A stretch of 6,415 bases of DNA, taken from the NCBI GenBank assembly GCA_019911785.1, contig JAIOJM010000217.1:1-6415 (forward strand), in the 5' to 3' direction. The stretch's first letter is position 1. Each line of letters begins with the position of its first letter. Below the pieces are notes generated by a model that was not told the origin of the DNA, ran no database searches, and worked only from the letters and a program-made list of their open reading frames with translations. A program made the position numbers and the translations under genes. This document shows positions 1,602 through 4,894 of the stretch, in pieces. This DNA is from Sulfuricella sp. (GTDB lineage Bacteria > Pseudomonadota > Gammaproteobacteria > Burkholderiales > Sulfuricellaceae).

Positions 1602-3482
1602 ATGAAGATTCAATCCGTTCGCATCAAAAACTTCCGCGCGTTGAAAGACGTAACGATCCTCTTCGATTCCGTTACGACCTTCATCGGGCCGAACGGTGCT
1701 GGCAAGTCAACTGTGCTTCGTGCGCTCGACTGGTTCTTTAACGGTAAGCCTGGCTCGCTGACGGAGAAGGACTGCTCCTTCGGGGCGACGGACGAAGACA
1801 TTGAAGTTCAGGTTACATTCGATGACCTCTCCGATAAGGACCGAGATGCACTTGGCAAGTACGCGCCGGAAGGAGTTGACACGTTTACTGCGTGGAGGTG
1901 CTGGTCACCTGGTGGCTCCGATGTGATTTCCGCCAATGCAAAAAGCTTTCCGGATTTCAATGCAATCAAGGTCGCTAACGGTGCTGCCGCGAAGAAGGAA
2001 CTGTACGCCGCTCTTCGACTTAATCATCCAGAACTGGAACTCCCGGCGGCCAGCACCGGCGCAACCGTTGAGCAGGCTATGACCACATGGGAAGCATCTC
2101 ATACTGATCAACTCGTCGACGCCCCAGAGGCACTGCAGACCAACTTCTTCGGCTTCAACAGCGGCGGAAAGATGAGTGGCCTTTTCGACTTCGTTCTGGT
2201 TACTGCCGACCTTCGGGCGAGGGAAGAATCAATGGATGGTAAGTCGAGCATCATTGGCCGAATCCTTGAACGTTCGGTTGATCGTGCTGCTGCTGATGAA
2301 GCGATTGCGGAGATTGTCGAAGAGTCACGCGCGAAGCAGCAGAAAGTCTACGACGAGAAGTTCAAGGCACAGCTTGATGCCATAACAACGCAGCTCAACG
2401 CGGTCGTCACGTCTTACTCGCCTGGTCGGGCTGTCACGGTTTCCCCTGCTGAGGTAGAGCTCAAGGCTCCTCGGACAACCTTTCAGGTGGCAGTGCTCGA
2501 TGGCACAACCGAGACTGATGTAGAGCGACAGGGGCATGGTTTTCAGCGCACGCTTCTGATTTCGGCGCTCCAGCTTTTGGCGCAGACGGGTGCGGCTTCA
2601 GCAGAGGGTGTCATATGCCTAGCAATCGAGGAACCGGAGCTCTATCAGCATCCGATACAGGCTCAGACCTTCGCGAAGGTGCTTCGGTCGCTTGCCGAGA
2701 GCGCCGGTAAGCGCATTCAAATAACGTATGCGACTCATAGTCCTTACTTTCTTGAGGCGCGACATTTCGACCAAGTCAGGCGACTAACAAGATCGACTGA
2801 CCAGACTCCTGCGGTCACTGTCCACTTCACCACAGTTGCTGATGTGAAAGCCAGGCTGAGTGGGGTGTTGAACGCCGATACAGTAGATCGCAAGCTCGAC
2901 AGTCTTGTGGCTAATGAACTTGCAGTGGCGCTCTTCTCAAATCGCACTTTCCTTGTGGAAGGAGCGACTGAATCGTCAGTTTTCTATGGTATTGCTGATA
3001 AGACCTCACTCGGCTCGCTTGAGGCCGCTGGAGTCTCCATCGTCCCCGTAGGAGGCAAGACAATGATCCCGCTCGCACACGCAATCCTGACATTGATCGG
3101 TATACCGGTCTATGCGCTCTTCGATGCAGACGGCAGATTTGAAGTGCGTGCCAAGGCCAATGGAAAGCCGCAAAATAAGATCGATGACGAACGGAGAACC
3201 CATGTGGCAGCGAATCGCATGGCGTTGAAGTACTTCGGTCAACCCGAAGAGGACTTTCCAGCTGCCGTTGTTGGCGACAACGTCGCGATCTTTGAGGATC
3301 ACCTTGAAACCTTCCTGTTAGAAAACTGGCCCGAATGGATCACGTCCTGCAACGAGGTCGAGGCTACCGCAGGTATCATTCTCGGAAAGAATCAACTTGC
3401 GTACCGAACGGCAACACTCAAGGCCGAGGGAGCTATACCAGAGATGCTCAAACAGATTCTGAAGAAGGCGGAAGGAACGTAG
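1602..3482 (+). CDS. OLD-family ATP-dependent endonuclease (AAA ATPase plus TOPRIM)
   Basis: A 626-residue protein (from ATG 1602) joining an ABC/SMC-like ATPase to a TOPRIM nuclease domain, the architecture of OLD family nucleases. ATPase motifs: first strand MKIQSVRIKNFRAL, Walker A GPNGAGKST (29-37), signature-like GHGFQR (311-316), Walker B ICLAIEEPELYQHP (338-351) with acidic pair E343/E344, and a THSP H-loop (378-381). TOPRIM motifs: LVEGATE (451-457; E453 and E457 expected metal ligands), GGK (484-486), and FDADG with D508 and D510; EDHLE follows at 565-569. No key residue is missing. Family members cut or nick DNA under ATP control, and several act in phage defence. The frame is open upstream to GTG 1527, but those 25 residues are not family-like. 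The DUF2130 gene begins 2 bases after its stop, indicating coupled expression. It is not GajA of a Gabija pair, because no UvrD-like gene is adjacent. Substrate is unknown. Confidence 0.9.
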   Translation: MKIQSVRIKNFRALKDVTILFDSVTTFIGPNGAGKSTVLRALDWFFNGKPGSLTEKDCSFGATDEDIEVQVTFDDLSDKDRDALGKYAPEGVDTFTAWRCWSPGGSDVISANAKSFPDFNAIKVANGAAAKKELYAALRLNHPELELPAASTGATVEQAMTTWEASHTDQLVDAPEALQTNFFGFNSGGKMSGLFDFVLVTADLRAREESMDGKSSIIGRILERSVDRAAADEAIAEIVEESRAKQQKVYDEKFKAQLDAITTQLNAVVTSYSPGRAVTVSPAEVELKAPRTTFQVAVLDGTTETDVERQGHGFQRTLLISALQLLAQTGAASAEGVICLAIEEPELYQHPIQAQTFAKVLRSLAESAGKRIQITYATHSPYFLEARHFDQVRRLTRSTDQTPAVTVHFTTVADVKARLSGVLNADTVDRKLDSLVANELAVALFSNRTFLVEGATESSVFYGIADKTSLGSLEAAGVSIVPVGGKTMIPLAHAILTLIGIPVYALFDADGRFEVRAKANGKPQNKIDDERRTHVAANRMALKYFGQPEEDFPAAVVGDNVAIFEDHLETFLLENWPEWITSCNEVEATAGIILGKNQLAYRTATLKAEGAIPEMLKQILKKAEGT

Positions 3483-3484
3483 AC

Positions 3485-4894
3485 ATGAACGAGATCAAAT
3501 GCCCGAACTGCGGGAAAGCATTCAAGATTGACGAAGCTGGGTACGCGGACATCCTGAAGCAGGTTCGCGACAGCGAGTTCGAACAGCAGTTGCACGAGCG
3601 GCTTGAACTGGCCGAGCAGGACAAGCGGAATGCTGTCGAGCTCGCCAAAACCCAAGCCGCCAGTGAATCGCAGAAGTCCGCAGCGGCTAAGGACACCGAA
3701 ATCCAGGAGCTAAAGTCCAAGCTCGAAGCTGGTGAGGTGGCGCGAAAGCTCGCCGTGACCGAAGCCCTAAGAACAGTGGAAAAAGAACGTGACGCACTTG
3801 CGAACGAACTTGAGAAGGCGAAGCATGAAAAGCAAGTCGTTTCCATGCTGGCCGAGGCGAGGCTCGTGAATGAACTACAGATGGCCGCCGCAACGAAGGA
3901 CGCGGAGATACAGGGCCTGAAGGCTACGCTCGACGCCATCGAGGTTGCGCAGAAACTCGCGATCACCGAGGCAGTCAATGCGGTCGAGAAGGAACGCGAC
4001 GAGCTGAAGAGCGGCCTCGAGCGAGCAGAGCTTGAGAAGCAGCTCGCCGAGAAGTCGCTCAAGGACAAGTACGAGACGCAGATCAAGGATCGAGATGACG
4101 CGATTGATCGTCTCCGGGACATGAAGGCTCGCCTATCGACCAAGATGGTTGGCGAAACCCTCGAACAGCACTGCGAGACCGAGTTCAATCGTATTCGAGC
4201 GACGGCGTTTCCGAGGGCATTTTTCGAGAAGGACAACGACGCGCGAAGTGGCAGCAAGGGCGACTACATCTTTCGCGACTCAGATGAGGCTGGCACTGAG
4301 ATCGTCTCGATCATGTTCGAAATGAAGAACGAGAGCGATCGCACCGCGACGAAGAGCAAGAACGAGGACTTCCTAAAGGAGCTCGACAAGGATCGCACCG
4401 AGAAGGGATGCGAGTATGCGGTACTGGTCTCCCTGTTGGAGCCCGACAGTGAGCTCTACAATACAGGGATCATCGACGTATTCCACCGCTACCCGAAGAT
4501 GTACGTCGTCAGGCCGCAGTTCTTCATTCCAATCATCACGCTGCTGCGGAATGCTGCGATGAACTCACTCAAATACAAGTCGGAGCTGGCGCTCGTTAGG
4601 GCGCAGAACATCGACATCACGAACTTCGAAACCGACCTCGAGACGTTCAAGACCTCATTCGCAAAGAACTACGACCTTGCATCCAGGCGATTCCAAACGG
4701 CGATCGATGAGATCGACAAGTCGATCGACCATCTGCAAAAAACGAAGGAGGCCCTGCTCGGCACCGATCGGAACCTTCGTCTTGCGAACGACAAGGCGCA
4801 GGACGTGACAATCAAGAAGCTGACTCGGGGCAACCCAACGATGGCGGCCAAGTTCGACGAGCTCAAGAATGATGGCCCTTCCGATGCTGGATGA
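3485..4894 (+). CDS. DUF2130 coiled-coil protein with a PD-(D/E)XK-like nuclease core
   Basis: A 469-residue protein from ATG 3485, chosen because AAGGA at 3472-3476 is 8 bases upstream and the N-terminus MNEIKCPNCGKAF is the normal DUF2130 start; the open frame back to 3335 only overlaps the OLD gene. Order of parts: one CPNCG knuckle (C6, C9; no second pair, so zinc binding would need dimerisation or be lost); a long coiled coil (about 24-217) with two copies of a 69-residue unit; the DUF2130 core (about 218-360); and a C-terminal helical region (about 395-445) ending in LTRGNPTMAAKF. In the core, GSKGDYIF (D260) and FEMK (E279, K281) form a D-X18-E-X-K pattern like PD-(D/E)XK nucleases, with GETLE (223-227) as the preceding acidic helix. 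The arrangement recalls RmuC. Nuclease activity is inferred, not known. Its gene is coupled to the OLD gene, suggesting a shared complex or pathway. Confidence 0.88.
   Translation: MNEIKCPNCGKAFKIDEAGYADILKQVRDSEFEQQLHERLELAEQDKRNAVELAKTQAASESQKSAAAKDTEIQELKSKLEAGEVARKLAVTEALRTVEKERDALANELEKAKHEKQVVSMLAEARLVNELQMAAATKDAEIQGLKATLDAIEVAQKLAITEAVNAVEKERDELKSGLERAELEKQLAEKSLKDKYETQIKDRDDAIDRLRDMKARLSTKMVGETLEQHCETEFNRIRATAFPRAFFEKDNDARSGSKGDYIFRDSDEAGTEIVSIMFEMKNESDRTATKSKNEDFLKELDKDRTEKGCEYAVLVSLLEPDSELYNTGIIDVFHRYPKMYVVRPQFFIPIITLLRNAAMNSLKYKSELALVRAQNIDITNFETDLETFKTSFAKNYDLASRRFQTAIDEIDKSIDHLQKTKEALLGTDRNLRLANDKAQDVTIKKLTRGNPTMAAKFDELKNDGPSDAG

What the first reader, a model, noticed from the sequence alone, without database searches (positions are those of the whole stretch)
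1602..4894. Tightly coupled OLD nuclease and DUF2130 nuclease-like pair: candidate uncharacterised defence or DNA-processing system
The stop of the OLD gene and the start of the DUF2130 gene are 2 bases apart, and the second ribosome binding site lies in the end of the first gene, so the two proteins are probably made together. One is an ATP-driven TOPRIM nuclease with all motifs intact; the other is a coiled-coil protein with a D-X18-E-X-K core like PD-(D/E)XK nucleases. OLD proteins are known in phage defence with other partners (UvrD-like helicase in Gabija), but I know of no described system with this partner. Two nuclease-like proteins, one with an SMC-like ATPase and one with a long coil, could form a DNA-sensing complex.
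Basis: partly seen in the sequence, partly recalled or inferred. Interest (0 to 1): 0.75.

Follow-up and report, generated by a model that had tools for sequence, protein, structure and literature searches.

The report
Coupled OLD and DUF2130 nuclease genes
Two neighbouring bacterial genes, an ATP-driven nuclease and a second nuclease-like protein with almost no literature, travel together as a small unit that is most likely a backup weapon against viruses, often plugged in beside classic restriction systems.

Summary
OLD (1602-3482) and DUF2130 (3485-4894) lie 2 bases apart with all active-site motifs intact. The pair recurs far beyond close relatives: of 35 genome loci with OLD at least 60% identical, 19 carry DUF2130 directly downstream, 6 a truncated or vestigial copy, 9 none, 1 undetermined. 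DUF2130 subfamily A also sits beside other OLD lineages, an AriA-like ATPase without TOPRIM, and AAA_13 and PDC-S46 ATPases. In 39 loci from even genome draws, 8 of 37 genes adjacent to DUF2130 match an OLD profile, against 1 of 372 others. Eight fetched loci hold the pair inside a helicase-DUF4391-[OLD-DUF2130]-type III R-M operon; one E. coli has it behind a type I system. DUF2130 has a predicted PD-(D/E)XK fold with invariant catalytic residues. Best reading: an exchangeable two-nuclease defence cassette, often a backup to restriction. No complex or phage effect was tested, and either gene also occurs alone. OLD ATPases paired with PD-(D/E)XK nucleases are already in print (PMC12839542), so this is a new variant, not a new kind.

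The parts
1602..3482 (+). OLD-family ABC ATPase-TOPRIM nuclease, 626 aa, class 1-like
1686..1709 (+). Walker A GPNGAGKS (residues 29-36)
2628..2639 (+). Walker B/EEPE motif (residues 343-346)
2958..2963 (+). TOPRIM E453-G454 motif
   Evidence: both invariant in 39 rows; E453 in 60 of 60
3123..3131 (+). TOPRIM D508-x-D510 motif
   Evidence: invariant
3472..3476 (+). ribosome-site-like AAGGA inside the end of OLD, 8 nt before the DUF2130 start
   Evidence: similar G-rich stretches in most of the 21 junctions printed
3485..4894 (+). DUF2130 (PF09903) protein, 469 aa, subfamily A
   Evidence: 3.1e-94
3500..3511 (+). N-terminal CPxC (residues 6-9), half of a zinc-ribbon-like knuckle
   Evidence: both Cys in 70 of 70 rows that reach the N-terminus; zinc binding not tested
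3572..4207 (+). long helix, predicted coiled coil (residues 30-241)
   Evidence: AlphaFold2 model, pLDDT block means 54-87 here
4124..4576 (+). PD-(D/E)XK-like nuclease fold (residues 214-364) with E224, E227, D260, E279, K281, D303
1186..1416 (+). 76-aa KTSC-like small gene, recurrent neighbour of this OLD clade (possible third component)
   Evidence: near OLD in 11 of 43 clade loci; match to Pfam KTSC far below cut-off (L013 homologue E 0.082; none for the window's own at E 0.1)

Best explanation
The two genes form one translationally coupled cassette of a mobile, recurrent type: a class 1-like OLD ATPase-TOPRIM nuclease plus DUF2130, a long-coil PD-(D/E)XK nuclease that serves as an exchangeable second effector for OLD-type and SMC-like ABC ATPases in anti-phage defence. 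Likely working: the OLD ATPase senses a phage-made DNA state or the blocking of host nucleases or restriction enzymes; its TOPRIM nuclease and DUF2130 are then switched on and cut nucleic acid, destroying the phage genome or stopping the cell. Near restriction-modification systems it acts as a backup layer. Shown here: gene coupling, near-constant spacing, intact motifs, predicted nuclease fold, repeated association with OLD and related ATPases, defence neighbourhoods in many relatives. Inferred: physical complex, trigger, substrate, defence outcome.
For: DUF2130 directly downstream in 19 of 35 OLD-clade loci and truncated or vestigial in 6. 26 of the 27 rows labelled paired (one, L009, with a truncated DUF2130) and all 6 remnant rows fall in one starred clade of the OLD tree. 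Other pairings of DUF2130 with other OLD lineages: L054, L157, L203, and with an AriA-like ATPase without TOPRIM, L152, where DUF2130 would be the only nuclease of the pair. Enrichment 8 of 37 adjacent against 1 of 372 other genes, Fisher p 1.8e-8. L203 looks like a cassette swap: KTSC-like gene and DUF2130 kept, the OLD between them from another lineage. Pair inside type III R-M operons in 8 fetched loci, two of them with the same genes (L003, L124), and behind a type I system in E. coli ET245. Catalytic residues of both proteins invariant. PD-(D/E)XK-like fold. Literature: PARIS AriA, an OLD-type ATPase, senses a restriction inhibitor and activates a separate nuclease; OLD ATPase-nuclease modules are seen as a likely backup layer in BREX (PMC12839542, section 35 part 1 read).
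Confidence: 0.5

Rival explanations
1. Two independent single-gene defences that share an operon. Each acts alone; adjacency reflects defence-gene clustering and co-transfer, with no complex or common trigger.
For: Each gene occurs without the other with intact active sites. In the same type III operon slot relatives have both genes (L003, L007), OLD with a likely DUF2130 remnant (L044) or DUF2130 only (L209). DUF2130 also adjoins DUF4297-HerA, AAA_13, an HsdR-N protein and a type III Res. OLD alone sits in an E. coli prophage, and an isolated OLD protein (YbjD) gives anti-phage phenotypes when induced (PMC13261556, part 1 of 2 of the text read).
Against: Adjacency to OLD-type ATPases is specific (8 of 37 against 1 of 372), is found with several OLD lineages, and keeps a 2-nt gap in 25 of the 28 pairs counted in this clade.
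Confidence: 0.3
2. Housekeeping or plasmid DNA repair and recombination: DUF2130 is an RmuC-like coiled-coil nuclease and OLD a RecF/Rad50-like ATPase.
For: The PF09903 model picks up four RmuC proteins weakly, below its cut-off (E 1.5e-4 to 7.7e-4); hhalign DUF2130-RmuC probability 48.5. A LigD-type ligase lies near DUF2130 on a Bradyrhizobium plasmid. Some DUF2130 copies have no defence neighbour that I could see (L218, L220, L221). An archaeal OLD protein acts in the cell cycle (PMC12796447, abstract start and passages).
Against: This OLD clade is rare and patchy: at E 1e-60 2 of 369 Gammaproteobacteria match, the centre genome and one 33% relative. It lies on plasmids, islands and a prophage, next to restriction systems in many cases.
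Confidence: 0.12
3. DUF2130 restrains or silences OLD (antitoxin-like partner).
For: OLD proteins can be toxic (PMC10568477, section on class 1 read; PMC13261556); tight coupling; in Shield some extra components lower ShdA activity (PMC10270631, abstract).
Against: OLD is kept in many loci where DUF2130 is truncated or vestigial (6 of 35) or absent (9 of 35), and DUF2130's own catalytic residues are invariant.
Confidence: 0.08

Closest known systems
Class 1 OLD proteins (P2 Old, T. scotoductus OLD, E. coli YbjD)
   Same: ABC ATPase plus TOPRIM in one chain; best sequence and fold match is TsOLD 6p74
   Different: Class 1 is defined as single genes; here a coupled partner gene follows
Gabija (GajA-GajB, class 2 OLD)
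   Same: OLD protein with a downstream partner
   Different: Partner is a PD-(D/E)XK-like coiled-coil protein, not a UvrD-like helicase; GajA sequence match is much weaker (3e-20 against 1e-56)
PARIS (AriA-AriB)
   Same: OLD-type ATPase with a separate nuclease; in L152 an AriA-like ATPase is followed by DUF2130
   Different: In the window the TOPRIM domain is fused to the ATPase and the separate nuclease has another fold
OLD-ABC ATPases with PD-(D/E)XK nucleases in BREX and RM-like loci (PMC12839542, section 35 part 1 read; Krishnan et al. 2020 known only through it)
   Same: Same general idea: OLD ATPase, PD-(D/E)XK nuclease, next to restriction-type systems
   Different: The word DUF2130 is not in that paper's searchable text (it is not among the 3 papers); whether its data hold this pair is unknown, as its supplement was not read
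Shield ShdA / RmuC (PMC10270631, abstract; PMC1189080, passages)
   Same: Long coil plus PD-(D/E)XK domain; ShdA is an anti-phage protein with nuclease activity
   Different: DUF2130 does not match PF02646 at E 0.01 and starts with a CPxC motif; relation is weak

Membership tests
Class 1 OLD | ABC ATPase domain followed by OLD-like TOPRIM in one protein | tested here: met
Class 1 OLD | Single gene without a linked partner | tested here: not met
   DUF2130 2 nt downstream; pairing spread through the clade, though 9 of 35 relatives are solo without a remnant
Class 2 OLD / Gabija | UvrD/PcrA/Rep-like helicase directly downstream | tested here: not met
   downstream genes are DUF2130 and Fic
Class 3 OLD / retron | Reverse transcriptase and ncRNA beside OLD | tested here: inconclusive
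   no reverse transcriptase among the 6 window proteins scanned; no Rfam search was run and the window is only 6.4 kb
Class 4 OLD / PARIS | ATPase (AriA) and TOPRIM (AriB) on separate genes | tested here: not met
   both domains in one protein (fused AriAB forms are mentioned in PMC10568477, last section read)
PD-(D/E)XK superfamily (DUF2130) | Characteristic fold | tested here: met
PD-(D/E)XK superfamily (DUF2130) | D...(D/E)-x-K catalytic core | tested here: met
   D260-X18-E279-X-K281 in the window; D260, E279 and K281 in 20 of 20 and 71 of 71
PD-(D/E)XK superfamily (DUF2130) | Nuclease activity | not testable with these tools
   needs purified protein
RmuC / Shield ShdA | PF02646 match | tested here: not met
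   PF02646 not listed at E 0.01
RmuC / Shield ShdA | Homologous nuclease domain | tested here: inconclusive
   hhalign probability 48.5, E 1.8e-4
Anti-phage defence system | Residence in defence islands | tested here: inconclusive
   relatives: yes in many; the window itself is too short
Anti-phage defence system | Protects against phage | not testable with these tools
   needs plating assays

The most novel reading that the evidence does not exclude
DUF2130 subfamily A is a general plug-in effector nuclease of bacterial immunity, shared by OLD (several lineages), AriA-like, AAA_13 (PDC-S06) and PDC-S46 ATPases and by restriction systems; the OLD-DUF2130 pair is an unrecognised OLD class in which one sensor ATPase drives two unrelated nucleases (TOPRIM and PD-(D/E)XK) and guards R-M systems against phage anti-restriction proteins.
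Probability: 0.3. Interest if true: 0.75.

Novelty: new variant of a known kind. Interest (0 to 1): 0.52.

Why it matters
DUF2130 (COG4487, name recalled) is a broad conserved family with almost no literature: 3 papers hold the word DUF2130 and 1 holds COG4487 in the searched library (listings only). Its recurrent place beside OLD and related ATPases, and inside type III and type I restriction loci, gives it a first testable function. E. coli strains carry the full locus, so the idea can be tested directly. It would add a partner to the OLD classes and show effector swapping in action.

Tried and rejected
Rejected: an obligate two-protein system, because OLD and DUF2130 each occur alone with intact motifs. 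Rejected: pairing limited to close relatives (titles). Rejected: a dedicated OLD-specific DUF2130 lineage, because OLD-paired DUF2130s are scattered over the subfamily-A tree, with 13 changes of the label and at least 5 forced by starred branches. Rejected as weak: strict co-divergence of the two proteins (Mantel r 0.28).

Led nowhere: the window's own genome is not held. No DUF2130 match in 50,697 phage records at E 1e-5, although 16 viral contigs of IMG/VR encode a relative, two of which, L125 and L126, hold the pair (L127 is similar). Solved-structure sequence search found no relative of DUF2130. The DUF4391 literature search gave 1 incidental paper. Promoter/terminator scan at chance level. 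Krishnan et al. 2020 is not held, so prior mention there cannot be excluded. Structure prediction was of each protein alone; no complex could be modelled.

Limits of counts: one search kept the best 80 of 332 confirmed stretches; the 35 are those at 60% or more among these 80. Of the 19 with DUF2130, L018 and L019 run off the contig end, L028 lacks the last residues, and L031 is a pair split over two contigs of one genome (L159). The 6 truncated or vestigial are L009, L011, L020, L026, L038 and L044; for L020, L026 and L044 only the first bases are recognisable (whose null sample includes the remnants themselves). L033 ends 282 nt after OLD. The 24 of 39 draw loci without a defence neighbour were judged from gene maps, BLAST against my query set and the OLD profile; their neighbours were not all scanned with family libraries. 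Rows dropped: in the OLD tree rows below 35% identity, 250 bits or 480 residues, repeat copies, and by a name pattern all of L160-L199, which removed the independent pair L198; L009 is labelled paired there. L118 left out of the Mantel test as a near-copy of L003. The DUF2130 tree holds 71 chosen rows; partial genes such as L009, L018, L019, L128, L129, L215 and L229 were left out. In one search my DUF2130 residue numbers were shifted by 2; one search repeats them correctly. Gene calls come from a home-made codon-usage caller.
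Full report

How far the pair extends. The genome scan with OLD kept 80 of 332 loci. Of 35 with OLD at least 60% identical, 19 have DUF2130 next to OLD (one pair split over two contigs of one genome; two run off the contig end), 6 have a truncated copy or a remnant of its start at that place (L009, L011, L020, L026, L038, L044), 9 have none (L008, L014, L016, L021, L029, L030, L033, L034, L036) and 1 is undetermined (L039). 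The genomes of the 9 hold no PF09903 match. Plasmid relatives L121 and L123 add two more remnants; L122 has none. The gap is 2 nt in 25 of 28 pairs counted; L018, L019 and L032 overlap by 1-4 nt. In the OLD tree (quick method) 26 of 27 rows labelled paired and all 6 remnant rows fall in one starred clade of 41 rows, mixed with 8 solo rows and 1 unlabelled row. An ancestral pair with repeated loss of DUF2130 is the simplest reading, though counts of changes do not fix direction. The 27th, Bifidobacterium L054 (OLD 42%, DUF2130 60%, gap 80 nt), lies outside.

The other direction. PF09903 passes its cut-off in 36 of 369 Gammaproteobacteria. This OLD clade is rare there: at E 1e-60 OLD matched 2 of 369 genomes, the centre itself and one 33% relative. 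Subfamily A (E at most 1e-80) is in 25 of 399 genomes of the order of G001 (Burkholderiales), 5 of 385 of the class of G015 (Alphaproteobacteria) and 4 of 394 of the class of G036 (Actinomycetes). Leaving out the two centre genomes and adding the six other subfamily-A loci gives 39 loci. Of 37 genes adjacent on the same strand, 8 match an OLD profile, against 1 of 372 other genes of the same stretches (Fisher p 1.8e-8); that one is GajA of a divergent Gabija locus, L222. The eight: L198, L201, L202, L230 (this clade), L200 (only the TOPRIM part left), L203 and L157 (other OLD lineages), L152 (AriA-like ATPase, no TOPRIM found). Further neighbours: AAA_13/PDC-S06 (upstream in L156, downstream in L206), DUF4297-HerA (L208, and plasmid L001), an HsdR-N protein (L207), a type I R-like gene two genes away (L211), the type III operon (L209). 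So 15 of 39 have a defence gene adjacent or close by; for the other 24 I found none, without exhaustive scanning. Outside the draws, PDC-S46 lies upstream of DUF2130 in L162 and a type III methylase and Res in viral contig L146.

Defence setting. In eight fetched loci (L003, L124, L118, L007, L010, L015, L024, L198; L003 and L124 carry the same genes) a SNF2-type helicase and DUF4391 precede OLD and DUF2130, and a type III methylase and nuclease follow (in L198 the DUF4391 place comes from BLAST only). PADLOC calls the helicase C3a139 (8e-127), the others MTase_III and REase_III. In L209 OLD is absent and DUF2130 follows DUF4391 with a 2-nt gap; in L044 OLD is present with a likely DUF2130 remnant. 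In E. coli ET245 the pair follows a type I system in a tRNA-Gly island; in E. coli H5 the long form lies in a tRNA-Thr island. Of 5426 E. coli genomes 6 match: 3 with the pair, 3 with OLD only, one of these opened and inside a prophage. The L152 locus also holds AbiE and PDC-M21 genes.

Partner exchange. OLD-paired DUF2130s are scattered over the DUF2130 tree, and distances of the two proteins correlate weakly (r 0.28). L203 keeps a KTSC-like gene (89% identical to the window's) and a DUF2130 that groups with that of L037 (support 85, not starred), while the OLD between them belongs to another lineage (25% identical). The KTSC-like gene is near OLD in 11 of 43 clade loci, with weak matches in 2 of 45 distant OLD loci and a match in 1 of 44 DUF2130 loci outside the OLD-clade group (that one is L203).

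Mechanism. Shown: coupling, intact nuclease motifs, predicted fold, recurrent association with OLD-type ATPases. Inferred: the ATPase senses and the nucleases execute. The parallels are PARIS, where an OLD-type ATPase senses a restriction inhibitor and activates a tRNA-cutting nuclease (PMC12839542, section 35 part 1), and P2 Old, which is triggered by RecBC inhibition and is reported to cut a tRNA (PMC13261556, part 1 of 2 read). In L152 the ATPase has no nuclease domain that I could find, so DUF2130 would be the effector. A DNA target is equally open: TsOLD is a 5'-3' exonuclease (PMC10568477, class 1 section read), which could degrade DNA opened by neighbouring restriction enzymes.

Novelty. 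DUF2130 appears in 3 library papers, DUF4391 and COG4487 in 1 each (listings only). Of 22 OLD papers since 2022 listed, no title or abstract start pairs OLD with DUF2130. But PMC12839542 reports OLD ATPases paired with PD-(D/E)XK nucleases in BREX and, citing Krishnan et al. 2020 (not held), in RM-like systems. Hence a new variant of a known kind. Verdict: a real, recurrent and interesting cassette, probably defensive, with partner dependence unproven.

Noticed in passing
window 1186-1416; also L013, L037, L203, L017, L025, L026, L123, L012, L027, L028, L120: A small KTSC-like gene recurs beside this OLD clade, upstream on the same strand or downstream on the other (11 of 43 loci). KTSC is recalled as a lysyl-tRNA-synthetase C-terminal type domain; a link to tRNA-cutting OLD proteins would be worth a look.
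   Followed up: partly
window 5107-6402 (-): Fic/DOC protein directly downstream, convergent with DUF2130 (Fic 1.5e-11, PADLOC SoFic 4.5e-25).
   Followed up: no
L152:10498-12021: AriA-like ATPase without a TOPRIM match followed by DUF2130, beside AbiE and PDC-M21 genes: a possible PARIS-like pair with a swapped effector.
   Followed up: partly
L209; L003; L044: The slot between DUF4391 and the type III methylase holds OLD and DUF2130, DUF2130 alone, or OLD with a likely DUF2130 remnant: an accessory slot in a type III R-M operon.
   Followed up: yes
L022:11884-13281 and 17270-18673: Two DUF2130 copies in one locus, only the first behind OLD.
   Followed up: no
L120:14001-15881: OLD of this clade alone inside a prophage of E. 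coli SCU-113.
   Followed up: no
plasmid hits H3-H32: DUF2130 is frequent on Bradyrhizobium plasmids (32 of 61 plasmid records with a match); in the one opened it is near a LigD-type ligase.
   Followed up: no
L093-L115: A second, widespread DUF2130 subfamily (about 20% identical) with the same D...ExK core; its neighbourhoods were not examined.
   Followed up: no
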